Made by a program: the position numbers and the translations under genes
Part shown: piece after piece, positions 3,001 to 20,851 of the stretch
How the letters are laid out: the number at the start of each line of letters is the position of its first letter
Numbering within the stretch: the first letter of the stretch is position 1
The notes under the pieces: model-generated
Database searches by the model: none
Seen by the model: the letters and a program-made list of their open reading frames with translations, nothing else
Told to the model about the DNA's origin: nothing
From: Leptotrichia trevisanii DSM 22070
GTDB lineage: Bacteria > Fusobacteriota > Fusobacteriia > Fusobacteriales > Leptotrichiaceae
NCBI RefSeq assembly: GCF_000482505.1
Contig: NZ_AXVL01000025.1
Location: forward strand, 13,737-50,730
Direction of reading: 5' to 3'
Length of the DNA stretch: 36,994 nt

Positions 3001-5082
3001 CCCAACTGCACCATCTGTTGCACTTGAAGCCGTTCCTGTCACATCCACCTTGCCACTATTTGTTATTGTTGAATTATTAGCTATTAATGCTTTAACAGAA
3101 GCCCCTGATGCAGAAATCTTTCCTGTACTTGTAGATGTACCTGCACCATTAGCAAAAATACCTGTTGATTTATCAGCTGTTATTGTAATATCTGCTGCGG
3201 TTGTTATTGGTTTAACTGTATATATTCCTATGTTATCAGCACCACCTGTGATATTGATTTCATGTTTAGTTCCAGAACCTAGAAGATTAACTGTTCCTTG
3301 TTTTACAAACACACCAGTATTGTTTTTTCCTTCTATATTGATAGCATATTCTTTTAATTTAAATGTATTTCCTGATGTACTTTCAAAAAATATACCTGTA
3401 TTTTTAGTTCCTGATAAATCAATATTCATCACAGAAGCTCTTGTATTTGCAGGTAAATCTGTAACTCTATTATCTCCTAAATCTCTATCAAATGCAACCC
3501 CACCTTCTAAATTCATCCATTGCTTAAACACAACTCCTGTAGAAAGTGTTCCAGAAATTTTTAAAGGTTTATTAAATAATATTTCAGCAGAATTATAATC
3601 ATAACTACCTGGATAATCACTGCCTCCATTTACAATAATTCCATATTGCTTACTTCCAGTCATATTAATTGTACCATCATTTATATAAGAAAAACCAGAG
3701 TTTACAGGATTTGTAGGCTGCATAATATATGCTAATATATCACCAGTCCCTCCTAAATTTATAGTACCTGCTCTATTATGAAAATATTGTTGTATTACAT
3801 TGGAATAATTCCCATGCGTTTCATCAAGTGCAATCCATCCAATATTGTTTGATCCATTTGTTGTTATCTTACCATCATTTACAAAACCTGTGTTTCCATT
3901 TGGATGTTGATGATATTGTGAAGTATACAATACCAAATAATTTCCATTTATATTTACATTTGTTCTGTTATTAAGAACCCAAGTTGATTCTCCTCTGTCA
4001 TTATGACCATCTGTATGAAATAACCATTTTTGATAACCTGAAGTCGACGAACCTGTATAATTTATTGTTACATCTCTAATATTTAATGTGTGTCCTCCTA
4101 CATTTTTAAAAGCAGCATACTGAGTTTGATTTGTAAAATTAAAATTTTGAATTCCATGTGGCACTTGATTATGACCGGCTCCTACTACTCCAGTCATATC
4201 AACTTCCGTTGCTTTTACATCATAACTGTTTCCATTTGCAGTTACATCAATTGTACCACCAGTCATATGTTGCTGAGCAATTGGTGCTACAGATCCTCCA
4301 GATTGAATCCATTCTTCATCTCCGTTTCCTGTTGCAGGTGCATTAATTGAAGGAGGATTTACTTCGGGTGCATCTGGTGGAGTAATATTAGGTGTAACCG
4401 GCCTAAAGTTAATCGCCTGTGGCAAGTTAGGCTGTGTAGCTGAAAGTGGAGTAACTGTTGGTGCTGTAAACACTCTCGGATTGATTCCTGCACTTACCTC
4501 GAATGCTACAATTGGTTCATTTACCGGCAACGTACTTGCTATACCATAACCTGATAATCCTTGTCTATTATTTGATGATGCCAGACGAGGATTTCTATTT
4601 CTGCCAAGCAGTGAATAATTTTTACTTTCAGGTGATACATATCTTTCATAGGCATTGGTACTTCTTTCAAATATACCCTCATATGGGTACTTTTCTTCCT
4701 TATCCCCTCTACCTTTATAAGTTCCGTTCCAATTATTATTAAAGTAATTTATACCATATTGCCAGCTGCTCCAAGGTGATTTTACAACATGATCACCTTG
4801 TTCCATTAATTGTGTCAGTTCCAATGTTGTATTTTTCATTAATTTACTGTTTTCTTTTCTTGCCCTTTTAAAATCAGTACGTATTTGATTTATTGATGTA
4901 TTTATCTGATTAACTTGATTCTTGATTCCTGAACCTTCATTATCTGCAAATATATTAGCTGATGCAAAAAGCATTCCTGTCATTAAAAACATAATCAATG
5001 CAGATTCTGTGTATTTAAAATCTTTTGTTCTTTTCGCAAATGCACGCAATTCTTGCGAAATTTTCTTTAAATTATTTGTCAT
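1..5082 (-). CDS. Giant type V autotransporter, N-terminal part (C-terminal barrel cut by window edge)
   Basis: The minus-strand frame is open from the ATG at 5082 to base 1 with no stop, giving 1,694 codons. The start has a good ribosome site (AAAGGAGAG, 9 nt upstream). Residues 1-45 match the N-terminal domain of fusobacterial autotransporters (MTNNLKKISQELRAF, then a TESALIMF membrane stretch ending in a FASANIFA-type cleavage site). A Gln/Asn-rich linker and a Pro-rich stretch near residue 230 follow. The passenger to about residue 1530 is built of short NTGTIT...VGVY-type repeats expected to form a beta helix. From about 1545 the sequence becomes barrel-like (DEMMGHQYGNLQQR, later GNSSGWYAGAV). 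The expected role is surface display, probably adhesion; the ligand is unknown. It is truncated only by the window edge and shows no sign of decay. Confidence 0.93.
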   Translation of the reverse strand, partial: MTNNLKKISQELRAFAKRTKDFKYTESALIMFLMTGMLFASANIFADNEGSGIKNQVNQINTSINQIRTDFKRARKENSKLMKNTTLELTQLMEQGDHVVKSPWSSWQYGINYFNNNWNGTYKGRGDKEEKYPYEGIFERSTNAYERYVSPESKNYSLLGRNRNPRLASSNNRQGLSGYGIASTLPVNEPIVAFEVSAGINPRVFTAPTVTPLSATQPNLPQAINFRPVTPNITPPDAPEVNPPSINAPATGNGDEEWIQSGGSVAPIAQQHMTGGTIDVTANGNSYDVKATEVDMTGVVGAGHNQVPHGIQNFNFTNQTQYAAFKNVGGHTLNIRDVTINYTGSSTSGYQKWLFHTDGHNDRGESTWVLNNRTNVNINGNYLVLYTSQYHQHPNGNTGFVNDGKITTNGSNNIGWIALDETHGNYSNVIQQYFHNRAGTINLGGTGDILAYIMQPTNPVNSGFSYINDGTINMTGSKQYGIIVNGGSDYPGSYDYNSAEILFNKPLKISGTLSTGVVFKQWMNLEGGVAFDRDLGDNRVTDLPANTRASVMNIDLSGTKNTGIFFESTSGNTFKLKEYAINIEGKNNTGVFVKQGTVNLLGSGTKHEINITGGADNIGIYTVKPITTAADITITADKSTGIFANGAGTSTSTGKISASGASVKALIANNSTITNSGKVDVTGTASSATDGAVGLAAMNNGTITHTGGGTIAVDGSASIGALGQSGGTVDITGGTIKATGGAFNTYAQGGTVKFNGTTIDTQQKSLAFYADNNGGTGRINFTGATTANIAGGTDANTRGTAFYYQGSGYSPFTSSDIASWSANTFGGTIGQLTLNMASGSRLFIASDVSMNLSDTAGSGLASSLGANIVGSDYKTFMLYKSLLKLNQSINLDNANDAYNQLEISNSSIDNNNNNTITGTQAGQTAIAQENLTANRTAVTLNNNGAINLSGANSTGMYAKFGVINNNATGTITLGDTSTGLYGIGDSILTNTGTITMGNKSTAMYSEGSTTQGVTNAGTITSTGTASVGVLFKPAATITAGAVLGNTGNISLGDNSVGLYGENTATNYTTSNSGNITVGQNGIGMFGYAADVTGGTVTVGNKGVGVYSQGGNVNLTGGTIATGASEAVGVYTVGSGQTITNSGTAFNLGDTSVALANAGNGNTVNSTVANVELGTNNIYVYSSDAAGTVNNSTNLSATGSGNYGIYSAGTVTNSGNMDFGNGVGNVGIYSVGGGTATNTGTITIGGSNAATNAFGIGMAAGYQNSDTGNVINNGTINVNGDYSIGMYASGAGSTATNNSNIVLNGNNTTGIYADNGATAINTGNISTGSGSYSNVVGVYLGTGATLNNTGTITINGSNSVGVYLKGGRVVNYGNITVNGNNNPSNTVQKFTTPPTGKGIGGANIDAPAGAQTATVTINGVKQTPVVINTFAKNPIEVSASSIGMYVNTSGKDYTKSINGLGNLTQEADLIIGTEATEMTNSKSILIKDPRILGPYNNAIKTSGVSNWNIYSGGLNWLATPTLNPNDGTMTSIYMVKIPYTAWAGRESTPVNSADTYNFLDGLEQRYGVEALDTRERKLFQKLNGIGNNEAILFYQATDEMMGHQYGNLQQRINATGNLLDKEFRYLKHDWRNPSKQNNKIKVFGMRDEYNTDTAGIINYTSNAYGVAYVHEDEKIKMGNSSGWYAGAVTNRFKFK

Positions 5083-5223
5083 TAACTCTTTCTCTCCTTT
5101 AAAAAATATATTTTATAACTTTTTATAAAAGTATACTCAAACTACTATTCATGATGATTGAAAAGTATCTAAGTCTAAATTTATAATTTTAAGTGAAGGA
5201 GATTGAAAAAAAGTATAAAAAAT

Positions 5224-5250
5224 GTGATTTATAGTGATTTCAAGTGATTT
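5224..5250. promoter_or_regulatory. Three GTGATTT repeats at exact 10-bp spacing upstream of the autotransporter
   Basis: GTGATTT occurs on the plus strand at 5224, 5234 and 5244 (AAATCAC in the sense of the gene). The exact 10-bp period places all three on one face of the helix, as expected for a protein binding as a row of dimers. They lie just downstream of the expected start point of the nearer promoter (5261-5290). A similar cluster is present in front of the FadA-like operon at 20782-20813. The binding protein is unknown. Confidence 0.5.
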
Positions 5251-5260
5251 TAGCTTTCAA

Positions 5261-5290
5261 AATATACTTTAATTTCAATTTCCTAGTCAA
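5261..5290 (-). promoter_or_regulatory. Candidate proximal promoter of the autotransporter
   Basis: On the minus strand TTGACT (5285-5290) and TATATT (5261-5266) are separated by 18 bp. Transcription would start near 5254, immediately before the AAATCAC repeats, giving a leader of about 170 nt. Matches are good but spacing is one longer than ideal. Confidence 0.45.
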
Positions 5291-5382: not shown

Positions 5383-5410
5383 ATTCTATCAAATTTTTTT
5401 AAATTGTCAA
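5383..5410 (-). promoter_or_regulatory. Candidate distal promoter of the autotransporter
   Basis: On the minus strand a perfect -35 TTGACA (5405-5410) is 16 bp from TAGAAT (5383-5388), which also has the extended TG element one base upstream. Transcription from here would give a leader of about 295 nt. Confidence 0.5.
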
Positions 5411-16365: not shown

Positions 16366-17070
16366 ATGATTGAAAAATATTTGACAAATAAATGTATTTT
16401 AATTGTTGATGATGAACAGGAAATTTTGGATATGATTGTATCAATTTTTGCTGATTATGGGTATAAAAATATACAGACTGCAAAAAATGTGAAAGATACT
16501 ATGAAACGTGTTGCAGAAAAACAGCCTGATTTAGCGATACTGGATGTTATGCTTCCAGACGGGAACGGTTTTGACTTACTGGAAAAGTTGAGAAAAGATA
16601 GTAATTATCCAATATTATTTCTTACAGCACGTGGAGAGGATGAGGATAAATTTAAGGGCTTTGGATTGGGGGCGGACGACTATATTGTGAAACCTTTTTT
16701 ACCAAAAGAGCTTTTATTTAGAATTACTGCTATTTTACGGCGAACTTACAAAGAAGAAAGTCCGATTGTAAATTTGAGCGGTTGTCAAATTGACTTTTCC
16801 TGTGGAGAAATTATAAAAGATAATAAAAATATATCATTAACTGCAAAGGAATATGAATTATTACAAACTCTTTACCGAAACGCTGGACGTATCGTAACCA
16901 TTGATACACTGTGTGAAGCTGTATGGGGTGAAAACGCCTATGTTTATACAAATTCTCTGATGACACACATAAGACGCATTAGAGAAAAAATTGAAATCAA
17001 CCCTTCCCATCCGGTATCACTAATAACAATGAAAGGGTTAGGTTATAAACTAATTGTGGAGGAAAAATAA
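16366..17070 (+). CDS. OmpR-family response regulator
   Basis: The 234-residue protein has a receiver domain with the acidic pair DD at 15-16, phospho-acceptor Asp60 (LAILDVMLPDG), Thr87 and Lys109 (VKPF), followed by a winged-helix DNA-binding domain (SLTAKEYELL, recognition segment YTNSLMTHIRRIREKI, GLGYKL). It is full length and all key residues are present. The ribosome site GGAAGGAG is ideal. The gene is co-transcribed with the histidine kinase, whose ATG is one base past the stop. It should be phosphorylated by that kinase and bind direct-repeat DNA; TTTAC repeats lie in its own promoter region. With its kinase it is the only plus-strand unit of the window. Confidence 0.95.
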   Translation: MIEKYLTNKCILIVDDEQEILDMIVSIFADYGYKNIQTAKNVKDTMKRVAEKQPDLAILDVMLPDGNGFDLLEKLRKDSNYPILFLTARGEDEDKFKGFGLGADDYIVKPFLPKELLFRITAILRRTYKEESPIVNLSGCQIDFSCGEIIKDNKNISLTAKEYELLQTLYRNAGRIVTIDTLCEAVWGENAYVYTNSLMTHIRRIREKIEINPSHPVSLITMKGLGYKLIVEEK

Positions 17071-17071
17071 T

Positions 17072-18460
17072 ATGAAAAGCATACTAAAACTCATACGCCG
17101 TTTTATAATAACATTAATATTAAGTTTTATTTTACTTCTATTCTTAAATATTTTTCTATACGGACTATGGATTGTTAAATATGTGTCAAAGGAGCCTCCT
17201 ATGAACTATACTTTTAAAGTAGCAACTATGTTAAAATTTGAAAATGGCAAATACACTTTGCCTGACAAAATAACTGCTGACTTAAAAAAACAAAATATAT
17301 GGGCAATCTTAATTGACAATGATTCAAAAAAAGTTATATGGCAAACTGACAATTTACCTGATGATATTCCAAAAGAATACTCTATATCTGATATTGCCAT
17401 ATTTTCACATGCCTATATAAAAAATTATCCTGTTTTCACCTCTAAAGTTGAAAATAATTTACTTGTACTGGGCTATCCTAAAAACAGTTATTGGAAATAC
17501 CCAATAGCCAGCTGGAAATATGGAATCATTAAAAATATTCCAAAATTTTTACTTGTACTTCTGTGTCTAAACATAATTTTCATATTTTTAATATATTTTA
17601 TTTCCAACTCTAAACTTTTAAGTTCTGTAAATCCAATAATAAAAGGTATACAAAATTTACCTAAAGATATGCCTGTATATGTTAAAGAAAAAGGGGTTTT
17701 GTCAGAACTCGCAAAAAGTATAAATAAAACTTCTGAAATCTTGCAAAATCAAAGAGAACAACTGCGAAATAAAGATACCGCAAGAGCCAACTGGATTGCA
17801 GGAGTTTCCCACGATATTCGCACCCCTTTATCAATGATAACGGGATACACAAGTCAGTTAAAGGCATCTTCAAATTTATCAGATGACACAAATAAAAAAC
17901 TTTCTGTAATTTTAAAACAGAGTGAACGCATAAAAAACTTAATAAACGATTTAAACCTTGCTTCCAAACTGGAATACAATATGCAACCTTTTGAACAAAA
18001 AAGAGAAAATGTGATAGCACTCGTTAGACAAGTTCTCGTTGATTTTTTGAATATGGATATTGATGAAAAATTTCCAATAGAATGGAAAACTGACAGCGAA
18101 TTTACATCCTGTTTTGTCAATGTTGACAGCAACTTAATAAAGCGTGCCTTGTCGAATCTAATTCAAAACTGTATCAATCATAACGAAAACGGATGTACAA
18201 TCTATGTTTCAATAAAAGAAGATAAAGATAACTGTGTAATCTGTGTTGAAGATAACGGAGCAGGAGTTTCTGATGAACAACTGAAAAAACTCAATAATAC
18301 TCCACATTATATGGTTTGTAATACAGATATTACTGAACAGCGACATGGATTAGGACTTCTCATTGTAAAACAAATTATTGATGTCCATAGTGGTAAAATT
18401 ATAGTAAAACACAGTCAATACGGAGGTTTTAAAGTCATTTTACACATTCCAAAATTATAA
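17072..18460 (+). CDS. Membrane sensor histidine kinase, partner of the response regulator
   Basis: With the ATG at 17072 the product has 462 residues. A GGAGG site 9 nt upstream supports this start over an earlier TTG at 17054. Membrane helices lie at about 9-35 and 156-178 and enclose an extracytoplasmic region of some 120 residues without a recognised domain. The dimerisation domain has WIAGVSHDIRTPLS with His247, and the catalytic domain carries the N box NLIQNCINHN and the DNGAGVSD and HGLGLLIV motifs. The signal is unknown. No ABC transporter is adjacent, unlike the bacitracin or lantibiotic sensing systems of Firmicutes that this kinase otherwise resembles. Confidence 0.92.
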   Translation: MKSILKLIRRFIITLILSFILLLFLNIFLYGLWIVKYVSKEPPMNYTFKVATMLKFENGKYTLPDKITADLKKQNIWAILIDNDSKKVIWQTDNLPDDIPKEYSISDIAIFSHAYIKNYPVFTSKVENNLLVLGYPKNSYWKYPIASWKYGIIKNIPKFLLVLLCLNIIFIFLIYFISNSKLLSSVNPIIKGIQNLPKDMPVYVKEKGVLSELAKSINKTSEILQNQREQLRNKDTARANWIAGVSHDIRTPLSMITGYTSQLKASSNLSDDTNKKLSVILKQSERIKNLINDLNLASKLEYNMQPFEQKRENVIALVRQVLVDFLNMDIDEKFPIEWKTDSEFTSCFVNVDSNLIKRALSNLIQNCINHNENGCTIYVSIKEDKDNCVICVEDNGAGVSDEQLKKLNNTPHYMVCNTDITEQRHGLGLLIVKQIIDVHSGKIIVKHSQYGGFKVILHIPKL

Positions 18461-18621: not shown

Positions 18622-19149
18622 CTATTTTGTAGCTTTGAATTCGATTCTTCTGTTTTCAAATCTTCCTTGTTCAGTATCATTTGGAGCGATCGGTTCAGAT
18701 TCTCCTCTTGATTCTACACCTATGATTCTTGCAGGATCTAATCCAAATTCTATCAATTTATCTCTAACTGCTACTGCCCTTCTCATACCTAAAGCCATAT
18801 TATAAGCATCAGAACCTTTAGAATCTGTATGTCCTATAATTGTTAATTTGAAGTCATGTTGTTCAGCATAATCTTTAACGTTTCTCAATAATTCAAAGTA
18901 TTGAGGTTTAACTACTGATTTATCAAAATCAAAGTTTAATCTTCCAGAATCGAATGCCCAAACTTGTGGTTCTGGAGCTGGTTCTGGTTCCGGTGCTGGA
19001 ATTGGTTCTGGAGCTGGCTCTTCTAACTCAAGAGCGTTAATTCTAATTGTATTTTCTCTCATTTGAGTAGTTGTCAGCCTTCTTGCCATTAGTGGTGAAG
19101 CAACTAACAACCCTAGTGCAATTATTGTTGTTGTTGTTCGTCTAACCAT
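18622..19149 (-). CDS. OmpA-family peptidoglycan-associated envelope protein
   Basis: The 175-residue protein has an N-terminal signal-like helix (TTTTIIALGLLVASPLMA), a Pro-Glu-Ala repeat linker (PAPEP units, about residues 45-62) and a C-terminal OmpA/MotB domain: FDFDKSVVKPQYFELL, IIGHTDSKGSDAYN, with Asp and Arg (NRRIEF) for diaminopimelate binding. It has no beta-barrel, so it is more like Pal or the OmpA C-domain than true OmpA. It probably tethers the outer membrane to the cell wall. Its ATG overlaps the end of the lipoprotein gene by 28 bases and has its own GAGAGG site, so translation is coupled. It is the last gene of the FadA-like operon. Confidence 0.88.
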   Translation of the reverse strand: MVRRTTTTIIALGLLVASPLMARRLTTTQMRENTIRINALELEEPAPEPIPAPEPEPAPEPQVWAFDSGRLNFDFDKSVVKPQYFELLRNVKDYAEQHDFKLTIIGHTDSKGSDAYNMALGMRRAVAVRDKLIEFGLDPARIIGVESRGESEPIAPNDTEQGRFENRRIEFKATK

Positions 19150-19319
19150 GTTTCAGCCTCTCTTTCTAACGATCTATATTTTTGGCTACCTGGATTTGGT
19201 TTGTTTTCTTTTAAATAATCTTCTATATGGTTCAATCTAGTTGTGTTATAATCTACCAATTTTGCGTTTGTACAAGACAAAGCTCCTAATCCTACGAATA
19301 ATAATGCTAACTTTTTCAT
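19122..19319 (-). CDS. Small outer-envelope lipoprotein
   Basis: The 65-residue product has a signal peptide with lipobox GALSC and a short mature part rich in charged residues and ending in four Gln (REAETWLDEQQQQ). The frame is open up to 19343, but the AGAAAGGA site is about 10 nt from the ATG at 19319, which begins a standard MKKLALLF signal sequence. I do not recognise a family. It sits in an operon with FadA-like and OmpA-like genes and overlaps the latter. A role in assembly or anchoring of the surface complex is inferred. Confidence 0.75.
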   Translation of the reverse strand: MKKLALLFVGLGALSCTNAKLVDYNTTRLNHIEDYLKENKPNPGSQKYRSLEREAETWLDEQQQQ

Positions 19320-19373
19320 ATTTTTCATTTCCTTTCTAAACATCCAATTTTATTTTTTTCTCTCTCTTTACTC

Positions 19374-19862
19374 TTAGTTCATTCTATTTTGAATAGTATC
19401 TAATCTTTGTTCCATTTGATCTAACATTTCGTTTGTTTTATGGAATTTTTCAATGTTACTGTTGATTTGATCCACTCTTTTTCTAATTCTTTGAATTTCT
19501 ACGTCCATCATTTTACTTTCAGACATATTTTTTCTTTGAGCTCTTAAATCTCTTGTTCTTGTTTTTCTTTGTTGAGCCGCTTCTTTTGCTTTTTCCGCTC
19601 TTTCTTTAGCTTGTGCCCTAGCAGCTTCTATTTTTTGACGTGCCTCTTGACTTACACCTGTAGGTTCAGCTACTTCTTCAACTGGAACTACCACTTCTTC
19701 TTCTACAACACCTTTTGCTGCTTCTTTAGCTTGTTGGGCTTGTCTTTGCTTAGCTACTTTAACTAATCTTTGCACAGCGGCATCAGTATTTGTTGGAGCT
19801 GAAAATGATACTTGACTCATCGCTAACACCATTACAGCTACTAATCCTAATATTTTTTTCAT
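19374..19862 (-). CDS. Secreted Ala/Glu/Lys-rich coiled-coil protein
   Basis: The product from the ATG at 19862 has 162 residues: a signal peptide ending FSA, an acidic valine-rich stretch (GVVEEEVVVPVEE), then about 60 residues of alternating charge (ARAQAKERAEKAKEAAQQRK) and a C-terminal helix ending in EQRLDTIQNRMN. A longer frame to 19910 exists, but AGAAAGGA is spaced for the shorter start. The helices should form long coiled coils in the periplasm or on the surface. It has no recognised domain. Its neighbours suggest envelope scaffolding or support of adhesins. Confidence 0.75.
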   Translation of the reverse strand: MKKILGLVAVMVLAMSQVSFSAPTNTDAAVQRLVKVAKQRQAQQAKEAAKGVVEEEVVVPVEEVAEPTGVSQEARQKIEAARAQAKERAEKAKEAAQQRKTRTRDLRAQRKNMSESKMMDVEIQRIRKRVDQINSNIEKFHKTNEMLDQMEQRLDTIQNRMN

Positions 19863-19937
19863 TGATTTTCCTTTCTTGAATAATATTTTATAAAAAATAT
19901 CGTCCTTCAAAATAACTAAATTTTTAATTCTTTATTT

Positions 19938-20324
19938 TTATTTAGTTGTTCTTCTAGATTTTTTTGGAGCGTTTTTAACGCCATCTCTTCCAAGAACGCT
20001 GTCAAATTCTCCTAATTCTTTTTCTTCTCTTTGTACACTTCTTACTACTCTTTCATAGAAGTCTACTCTGTCTGCTGCTTTAGCTGCGTTGTATTCTAAT
20101 TTTTCAATTGGAGATTTTCTTTTAACTACTTCTTTTTCTTCAATAACACCATCTTCATCAATTGTAACTAATTTTTCAGTTGTCATTTTTGGTTCTTTAG
20201 GTGTTTTTAAACTTTTGTAGTAATCATCTCTGGCTTGTTTTAATATTTCTTGTGGAGAAGCTGCCATCATAGGCACAGATAATACTGCTACTATCCCACA
20301 TAACAATAATTTTTTTGCTTTCAT
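19938..20324 (-). CDS. Secreted small helical protein of the FadA-like operon
   Basis: The 128-residue protein starts with a clear signal peptide (MKAKKLLLCGIVAVLSVPMMAA). The mature part is highly charged, with TIDEDGVIEEKEVVKRK in the middle, a helical VDFYERVVRSVQREEKELGEF segment and a basic tail (KKSRRTTK). I do not recognise a family. It is second in the operon, 23 nt after the FadA-like gene. Size and helical content resemble the small proteins accompanying fusobacterial adhesins, but the function is unknown. Confidence 0.72.
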   Translation of the reverse strand: MKAKKLLLCGIVAVLSVPMMAASPQEILKQARDDYYKSLKTPKEPKMTTEKLVTIDEDGVIEEKEVVKRKSPIEKLEYNAAKAADRVDFYERVVRSVQREEKELGEFDSVLGRDGVKNAPKKSRRTTK

Positions 20325-20347
20325 CTTTTAATTACCATTCCTTTCAA

Positions 20348-20734
20348 TTAATTCATTACTGATAATAATGTATCCAATTCTGCAATTTTTTGTTCCTTTG
20401 CTGCAATAGATTTGTTTATGTTTTTATAAAGAGTTTCGGAATTATTCAGTATTTTTTTATATTTGTCCCTGTGCCATCTAACTTCTGAATCTACTCTTAA
20501 TTTTTCTAATAATTTTTCTCTGTCAGCCTGTTTAGATTTTAAATCTTCAACTTCAGCTTCCAATTGTGCTTTTTGTTGTCTATAGCTTTCTTTTTGTGCT
20601 TCTTCTTTTCTCATTAATTCATTGAATTGGTTTTCAATTGAATTTAAGCTGCTTTCCAAGCTCTTTTTTTCAGCAGAGAAACCTATTGACGAAACCATCA
20701 TTATTCCAACTAAAAAGAATATTGTCTTTTTCAT
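20348..20734 (-). CDS. FadA-family adhesin
   Basis: The 128-residue protein has a signal peptide (ending GFSA) and a mature chain of about 107 residues predicted as a helical hairpin. It follows the pattern of Fusobacterium nucleatum FadA: SLESSLNSIENQFNEL, a Glu/Gln-rich first helix, RWHRDKYKKIL at the place of FadA RFYKSQYQDL, and a second helix ending LDTLLSVMN. FadA forms filaments and binds host cadherins; whether this homologue does so is unknown. It opens a five-gene envelope operon, with a strong AGGAGG site and a promoter with phased repeats upstream. Confidence 0.85.
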   Translation of the reverse strand: MKKTIFFLVGIMMVSSIGFSAEKKSLESSLNSIENQFNELMRKEEAQKESYRQQKAQLEAEVEDLKSKQADREKLLEKLRVDSEVRWHRDKYKKILNNSETLYKNINKSIAAKEQKIAELDTLLSVMN

Positions 20735-20781
20735 TCGATTTTCCTCCTAATTATTTAATTCCATAACAATAAATGAATATG

Positions 20782-20813
20782 AAATCACTATTAAATCACT
20801 TACCTATCATCAC
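20782..20813. promoter_or_regulatory. GTGAT repeats in the leader of the FadA-like operon
   Basis: On the plus strand AAATCAC occurs at 20782 and 20793 (11 bp apart) with TCATCAC at 20807; in the sense of the operon these read GTGATTT and GTGATGA. They lie at about +3 to +34 from the predicted transcription start. The same heptamer is repeated upstream of the autotransporter at 5224-5250. Confidence 0.45.
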
Positions 20814-20822
20814 TTATTTAAT

Positions 20823-20851
20823 ATTATACCAAATTATATAAAAAAATACAA
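20823..20851 (-). promoter_or_regulatory. Promoter of the FadA-like operon
   Basis: On the minus strand TTGTAT (20846-20851) and a perfect TATAAT (20823-20828) are 17 bp apart, and the -10 box has the extended TG element. The leader is about 80 nt. Confidence 0.7.

What the first reader, a model, noticed from the sequence alone, without database searches (positions are those of the whole stretch)
5224..5250. Helically phased AAATCAC repeats just downstream of the autotransporter promoter
GTGATTT occurs three times at exactly 10-bp steps. The cluster starts about 4 bp after the expected start point of the proximal promoter. Because the FadA-like operon has the same heptamer at the same place relative to its promoter, one regulator could coordinate two classes of surface proteins.
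Basis: partly seen in the sequence, partly recalled or inferred. Interest (0 to 1): 0.55.

Follow-up and report, generated by a model that had tools for sequence, protein, structure and literature searches.

The report
Adhesin mRNA leaders with complementary motifs
A short repeated motif in front of giant surface-protein genes of the mouth bacterium Leptotrichia mirrors the start of another adhesin gene's message, as if the messages of the two kinds of surface protein could pair with each other and be controlled together.

Summary
The repeat is real: GTGATTT at 5224, 5234 and 5244. In 13 Leptotrichia genomes all 17 exact pairs 9-11 bp apart lie ahead of autotransporter (AT) genes (12) or a fadA-like gene (5); the reversed-pattern control gives 3. 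AT genes carry AAATCACT in sense (60 sense against 2 antisense units in 84 leaders); the fadA leader carries its reverse complement. The promoter 4 bp upstream is not conserved; arrays mostly sit deep inside predicted 5' leaders. The fadA leader complements AT leaders far above decoys (43 against a null mean of 7.3, maximum 17). In a second clade both sides changed together (AT CACTCACTCA/AAACTATTC; fadA GAGTGA/GAATAGTTT), and fadA is again essentially the only sense partner in the genome. There the AT site fills the invariant loop of a covarying 28-bp hairpin. Best reading: the fadA mRNA leader pairs with AT mRNA leaders, linking two adhesin classes (about 0.5). Main rival: a DNA-binding regulator with direct-repeat operators (about 0.25), favoured by the 10-bp phasing and the lack of wobble-preserving changes. 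No expression data were available.

The parts
5224..5250 (-). Array of three AAATCAC units in the predicted 5' leader of the AT gene, 10-bp steps
5194..5289 (-). Predicted leader hairpin (arms 5289-5263 and 5217-5194) with the array in its apical loop
   Evidence: L014: 22 pairs span the array, z -2.2; the helix is not kept column by column in related leaders
5383..5410 (-). Best predicted AT promoter, TTGACA-16-TAGAAT, about 130 bp upstream of the array
   Evidence: score 13.4; strong promoters 120-240 bp upstream of the array in L104, L084, L090
1..5082 (-). Autotransporter gene (fuso_auto_Nterm, NF033175), runs off the window
20823..20851 (-). Predicted fadA-like promoter TTGTAT-17-TATAAT
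   Evidence: conserved in the genus
20735..20816 (-). Predicted fadA-like 5' leader, complementary to AT leaders
20782..20813 (-). Three GTGAT units (starting at 20813, 20799, 20788 on the - strand) near the start of the fadA-like leader
20348..20734 (-). FadA-like adhesin gene
   Evidence: PF09403, E 6e-17
16366..18460 (+). PhoB/OmpR-type response regulator and histidine kinase; considered as the regulator, but found at this locus in only 3 of 13 genomes

Best explanation
The repeat is an RNA-level site in the 5' leaders of AT mRNAs. Two or more AAAUCACU units (CACUCACUCA plus AAACUAUUC in a second clade) are shown in the loop of a leader hairpin. The 5' end of the fadA-like mRNA carries the matching AGUGAUUU units (GAAUAGUUU and GAGUGAG in the second clade). 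The fadA leader, as the full mRNA or a fragment, would pair with the AT leaders and so couple two adhesin classes: one regulator leader, many targets. Shown by computation: the motifs, orientation, complementarity beyond decoys, change in step between clades, a covarying hairpin in one group of clade B. Inferred: that both regions are transcribed, that they pair in cells, and the direction. My guess (about 0.25) is that fadA transcription lowers AT mRNA, since the sites lie well before the AT start codon (about 70-120 nt in clade B, 130-580 nt in clade A), which suits duplex cleavage or altered stability better than start-site blocking.
For: Sense arrays in 23 of 116 AT upstream regions, antisense arrays in 0. 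Unit AATCACT: 60 sense, 2 antisense in 84 clade-A leaders; TCACTCA: 32 sense, 0 antisense in 32 clade-B leaders. fadA-AT complementarity: score >=17 in 15 of 116 and >=14 in 43 of 116, against same-sense 0 and 7 and 400 decoy draws with means 0.66 and 7.3, maxima 5 and 17. blastn of the fadA leader over 13 genomes: no second copy; mid-leader matches include seven AT leaders, all antisense. Clade swap: AT leaders match their own clade's fadA leader better (11.5 against 9.6; 11.1 against 10.2). Clade B: GAATAGTTT..GAGTGA falls on antisense AT leaders (15 rows), the two fadA leaders and one other place; reversed control 1. Hairpin: 28 pairs, 87.7% of cells paired, 7 pairs changed on both sides, covariation reached by 1 of 500 shuffles. 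Pairs spanning the site: clade B 25.3 against 10.4 in G-free controls (p 3.5e-8), clade A 12.3 against 6.6 (p 0.02). Window AT with own fadA leader: predicted duplex -26.2 kcal/mol.
Against: AT spacing is 10 bp more often (16) than 11 (11), while fadA units 2 and 3 are 11 apart, so many clade-A duplexes need a bulge, and the 9-11 and 19-21 peaks look like DNA phasing. Mismatches do not favour G-U wobble: 2 of 32 keep a pair. The fadA 5' end is not predicted to be open (mean unpaired 0.35-0.52). Clade-A hairpins are weakly supported: the 25-nt flank test gave a median fraction of 0.46 and the L014 helix is not kept in related leaders. The A2 stem was taken from one member's own fold, and covariation in the second clade-B group A3 is weak (1 pair). 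G010 shows neither match. Most AT leaders (75 of 116) have no site. Transcription start sites are predictions.
Confidence: 0.5

Rival explanations
1. DNA operator: an OmpR/PhoB-type or other direct-repeat-binding protein binds AGTGATTT units on one DNA face ahead of AT genes and, inverted, ahead of fadA, and controls both.
For: Spacing peaks at 9-11 and 19-21 bp; direct repeats at 10-11 bp fit such regulators (general knowledge); a PhoB/OmpR-type regulator lies near fadA in the window; lack of wobble-type changes; co-variation would also follow from a change in specificity.
Against: Distance from the predicted promoter varies from about 50 to 330 bp; orientation is fixed and opposite in the two gene classes, which operators do not need; the nearby regulator is at this locus in only 3 of 13 genomes; in clade B the gap between the two elements differs (AT 0-12, fadA 21-23) and the site fills a covarying RNA loop.
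Confidence: 0.25
2. A third RNA (an unannotated sRNA) or an RNA-binding protein targets the AT leader loops; the fadA leader is only another partner or a decoy.
For: Sense orientation, loop position and many targets fit an sRNA regulon; sigma-E sRNAs FoxI and FoxJ of Fusobacterium act on type 5 autotransporters and on fadA3-autotransporter operons (PMC11005410, abstract and passages).
Against: No other convincing locus resembling the fadA leader in the searches made; off-target matches examined lie mostly in open reading frames. A loop-binding protein would not explain complementary fadA motifs.
Confidence: 0.15
3. Shared ancestry or drift: leader sequences copied between neighbouring surface genes, without function.
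For: AT and fadA genes are near each other in several genomes, and AT genes are repeated paralogues.
Against: Both sides changed together in clade B; fixed orientation; AT groups with different flanks share the motif.
Confidence: 0.07

Closest known systems
irvA-gbpC of Streptococcus mutans (riboregulatory mRNA; Liu 2015, cited in PMC7101444, passages read)
   Same: One mRNA pairs through a seed with the mRNA of a surface adhesin and changes its stability.
   Different: One target there; here one leader and many paralogous targets, sites in predicted hairpin loops, pairing only predicted; no relatedness by descent is claimed.
FoxI and FoxJ, sigma-E dependent sRNAs of Fusobacterium nucleatum (PMC11005410, abstract and passages read)
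   Same: Post-transcriptional control of autotransporters and fadA3-autotransporter operons in a relative of the same phylum.
   Different: Free-standing sRNAs; here the only complementary partner found is the leader of the fadA-like gene itself. Homology was not tested.
OmpR/PhoB-type direct-repeat operators (general knowledge)
   Same: Direct repeats about one helical turn apart.
   Different: Variable promoter distance, inside predicted leaders, fixed and opposite orientation, loop structure in clade B.
Antisense-RNA target loops such as FinP-traJ or hok-sok (recalled, from no call)
   Same: Invariant loop sequence on a stem that varies in sequence, with a complementary partner RNA.
   Different: Those are cis-encoded antisense pairs; here the partner is a distant mRNA leader and the targets are many.

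Membership tests
Trans-acting mRNA leader (irvA-like) | Complementarity between two mRNA leaders beyond chance | tested here: met
Trans-acting mRNA leader (irvA-like) | Complementarity kept by matched change in relatives | tested here: met
   G010 is an exception
Trans-acting mRNA leader (irvA-like) | Both regions are transcribed leaders | tested here: inconclusive
   promoter prediction only (best promoter upstream of the array in 18 of 23)
Trans-acting mRNA leader (irvA-like) | Pairing changes target mRNA or protein in cells | not testable with these tools
   no expression data
Antisense target loop | Covarying stem, invariant loop carrying the complementary sequence | tested here: met
   clade B group A2 only; weak in A3
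Antisense target loop | The same in the window's own clade A | tested here: inconclusive
OmpR/PhoB-type operator | Direct repeats one helical turn apart | tested here: met
OmpR/PhoB-type operator | Constant position relative to the promoter | tested here: not met
   (predicted promoters)
OmpR/PhoB-type operator | Conserved linked regulator | tested here: not met
   the window's regulator and kinase at this locus in G000, G002 and G009 only (the G005 contig was short)
Known Rfam leader element | Match to an Rfam family | tested here: not met
   (11 sources)
FoxI/FoxJ sRNA | Sequence homology and sigma-E control | not tested
   no comparison was run

The most novel reading that the evidence does not exclude
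In Leptotrichia the leader of a single fadA-like adhesin mRNA is a trans-acting regulatory RNA for a whole set of giant autotransporter mRNAs. It pairs with loop-displayed sites in their leaders, and regulator and targets have evolved in step across the genus: a leader-to-leader adhesin switch.
Probability: 0.4. Interest if true: 0.82.

Novelty: new variant of a known kind. Interest (0 to 1): 0.62.

Why it matters
Adhesin switching in Fusobacteriota is little understood, and RNA control in Leptotrichia seems hardly studied (no paper in the library searched holds 'Leptotrichia', 'autotransporter' and 'untranslated region'; one search listed none on this subject among 15 of 145). A one-to-many mRNA-leader regulon, with regulator and targets changing together, would extend single cases such as irvA-gbpC to a gene-family-wide network, and gives concrete, quickly testable base pairs.

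Tried and rejected
Flanking-hairpin test with 25-nt arms: not general in clade A (median fraction 0.46; only L015 strong). Covariance over 16 clade-B leaders in one alignment: no consensus structure; I then split them into A2 and A3. Wobble-type substitution test: no support. Rfam: nothing. The covariance model R1 finds 11 AT leaders with E below 1e-10 and six weaker matches (E 0.004 to 0.75): three lie in an open frame that looks orthologous (L248-L250), one (L220, G008:1425585) overlaps an AT leader already counted as L083, and two (L208, L221) were not examined. Linked response regulator as the conserved regulator: rejected on distribution. Pattern matches outside the genus (11 rows in 83 genomes) were not examined for context. 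Whole-leader duplex energies point the same way (26 of 116 leaders with at most 1 of 40 shuffles as good, about 5.7 expected) but are noisy and not relied on.

Rows dropped: of 129 NF033175 matches I used 116. Left out: ten below the cut-off (one of them a second match in a gene already used), the partial G000:C36 match, the second fragment at G012:1642890, and the contig-edge match G009:C3:83. G000:C11, below the cut-off because the contig ends there, was kept. The clade-B site pattern and the complementarity score were chosen after looking at the sequences; the decoy null uses the same score.

Full report
OBSERVATION. The three GTGATTT units are present as described. On the coding strand of the autotransporter (AT) gene, whose ATG is at 5082, they read AAATCAC-ttg-AAATCAC-tat-AAATCAC. 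Single heptamers are near chance in the window (15 against 9.5); clusters are not. The genus is Leptotrichia: the fadA-leader pattern finds L. hongkongensis JMUB5056, whose chromosome length equals that of G003.

GENOME SCAN. Exact pairs 9-11 bp apart occur 17 times in the 13 genus genomes (reversed control 3) and 11 times in 83 other genomes of the order. All 17 lie ahead of AT genes (12 rows, 10 genes; NF033175 places) or of one FadA-like gene (5 genomes).

ANATOMY OF AT LEADERS. I took 600 bp ahead of 116 of 129 NF033175 matches (dropped rows are listed under Tried and rejected). Twenty-three regions, in 10 of 13 genomes, hold two or more AAATCAC-like units 9-11 bp apart; all 23 are in sense, none antisense. 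Spacing counts: 9 (6), 10 (16), 11 (11), 12 (0), 13 (2), 19-21 (11). By simple promoter scoring the best site lies upstream of the array in 18 of 23, at very different distances (-10 element 51-331 bp before the array start). In five it lies downstream; two of those arrays are within 22 nt of the edge of the stretch.

THE FADA SIDE. The fadA-like leader has, shortly after TATAAT, AAGTGATGATAGGTAAGTGATTTAATAGTGATTTC. It is well conserved in seven genomes and shortened or altered in the others. This is the reverse complement of the AT motif, not the same motif in sense. Local alignment of the reverse complement with AT leaders of the same genome gives scores of 17 or more in 15 of 116 and 14 or more in 43 of 116; same-sense alignment gives 0 and 7, reversed 0 and 1. 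Decoy 70-mers from the same loci give means of 0.66 and 7.26 and maxima of 5 and 17 in 400 draws. Matches run into spacers and flanks, for example a 17-nt exact match in L016 and L107. blastn with the leader finds no second copy in the genus; matches in its middle part include seven AT leaders, all antisense, next to a background of short chance matches.

CO-EVOLUTION. In G006 and G008 the fadA leader differs (GAGTGGTGATAG..GAATAGTTTGAG..GTGAGTGAG in G008), and so do the AT leaders (CACTCACTCA..AAACTATTC). fadA unit 2, AAGTGATTT, aligns with GAATAGTTT; AT AAATCACTT is matched by AAACTATTC. AT leaders match the fadA leaders of their own clade better than those of the other (clade A 11.46 against 9.57, n=84; clade B 11.11 against 10.17, n=32; G010, counted in clade B, alone shows neither). 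The bipartite pattern GAATAGTTT..GAGTGA occurs in G006 and G008 (none in G010) at 18 places: 15 rows antisense in AT leaders, the two fadA leaders, and one other place over a gene start; reversed control 1. The gap between the two elements is 0-12 in AT leaders and 21-23 in fadA. AATCACT is 60 sense to 2 antisense in clade A; TCACTCA is 32 to 0 in clade B.

STRUCTURE. In the 41 leaders with a site (23 arrays plus 18 clade-B sites found by a pattern written after inspection), the site is mostly unpaired (0.82 against 0.43) and enclosed by more pairs (18.0 against 7.9) than other windows of the same leaders. Because the sites lack G, I repeated the test with G-free control segments: clade B 25.3 against 10.4 (p 3.5e-8), clade A 12.3 against 6.6 (p 0.02). 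In nine clade-B leaders a 28-bp stem, taken from one member's predicted fold, has 87.7% of cells paired, 7 pairs with both sides changed, and a covariation score reached in 1 of 500 shuffles; slid versions score lower. A second clade-B group shows little covariation, and the window's own helix is not kept column by column in related leaders.

MECHANISM. I read this as RNA pairing between the fadA leader and AT leader loops. The window's AT and fadA leaders are predicted to pair at -26.2 kcal/mol. Against it: 10-bp spacing is commoner than the 11 of fadA, wobble-preserving changes are not enriched (2 of 32), the fadA 5' end is not predicted to be open, and no transcript data exist. The main rival is a DNA-binding regulator. 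The response regulator near fadA is at that locus in only 3 of 13 genomes.

LITERATURE. PMC11005410 (abstract and passages): sigma-E sRNAs of F. nucleatum regulate type 5 autotransporters and fadA3 operons. PMC7101444 (passages): irvA mRNA pairs with gbpC mRNA in S. mutans. A search for Leptotrichia + autotransporter + untranslated region found 0 papers; Leptotrichia + small RNA found 145, of which the 15 listed were seen as listings only, none on this subject.

Noticed in passing
L182, L184, L185 (fadA-like leaders of G007, G011, G012): The leader is about 150-190 nt longer, with a conserved structured part (CCTAAGGAACTAC..GGGGATAG..TTACGGGAGTTTT in part) whose GGAACTAC could pair with the altered third unit (GTAGTTCC); no Rfam match. 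Possibly an undescribed leader element.
   Followed up: partly
window 16366-18460: VanRS/PhoBR-like two-component pair beside the fadA operon, found at this locus only in G000, G002 and G009 (88-100% identical), as if gained or lost as a unit.
   Followed up: partly
L015 (G000:C69, about 230 nt before the AT start): Array enclosed by a very stable hairpin (flank duplex -22.8 kcal/mol), far beyond the other clade-A leaders.
   Followed up: no
window 18622-20734: Operon-like run of FadA-like, small unknown, FAD-I-like and OmpA-like genes downstream of the complementary leader.
   Followed up: no
clade-B AT leaders, e.g. L102: The loop element AAACUAUUC could also form a small hairpin with GAUAGUUU followed by a U run, terminator-like in outline; a possible attenuation switch (read from the sequence).
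   Followed up: no
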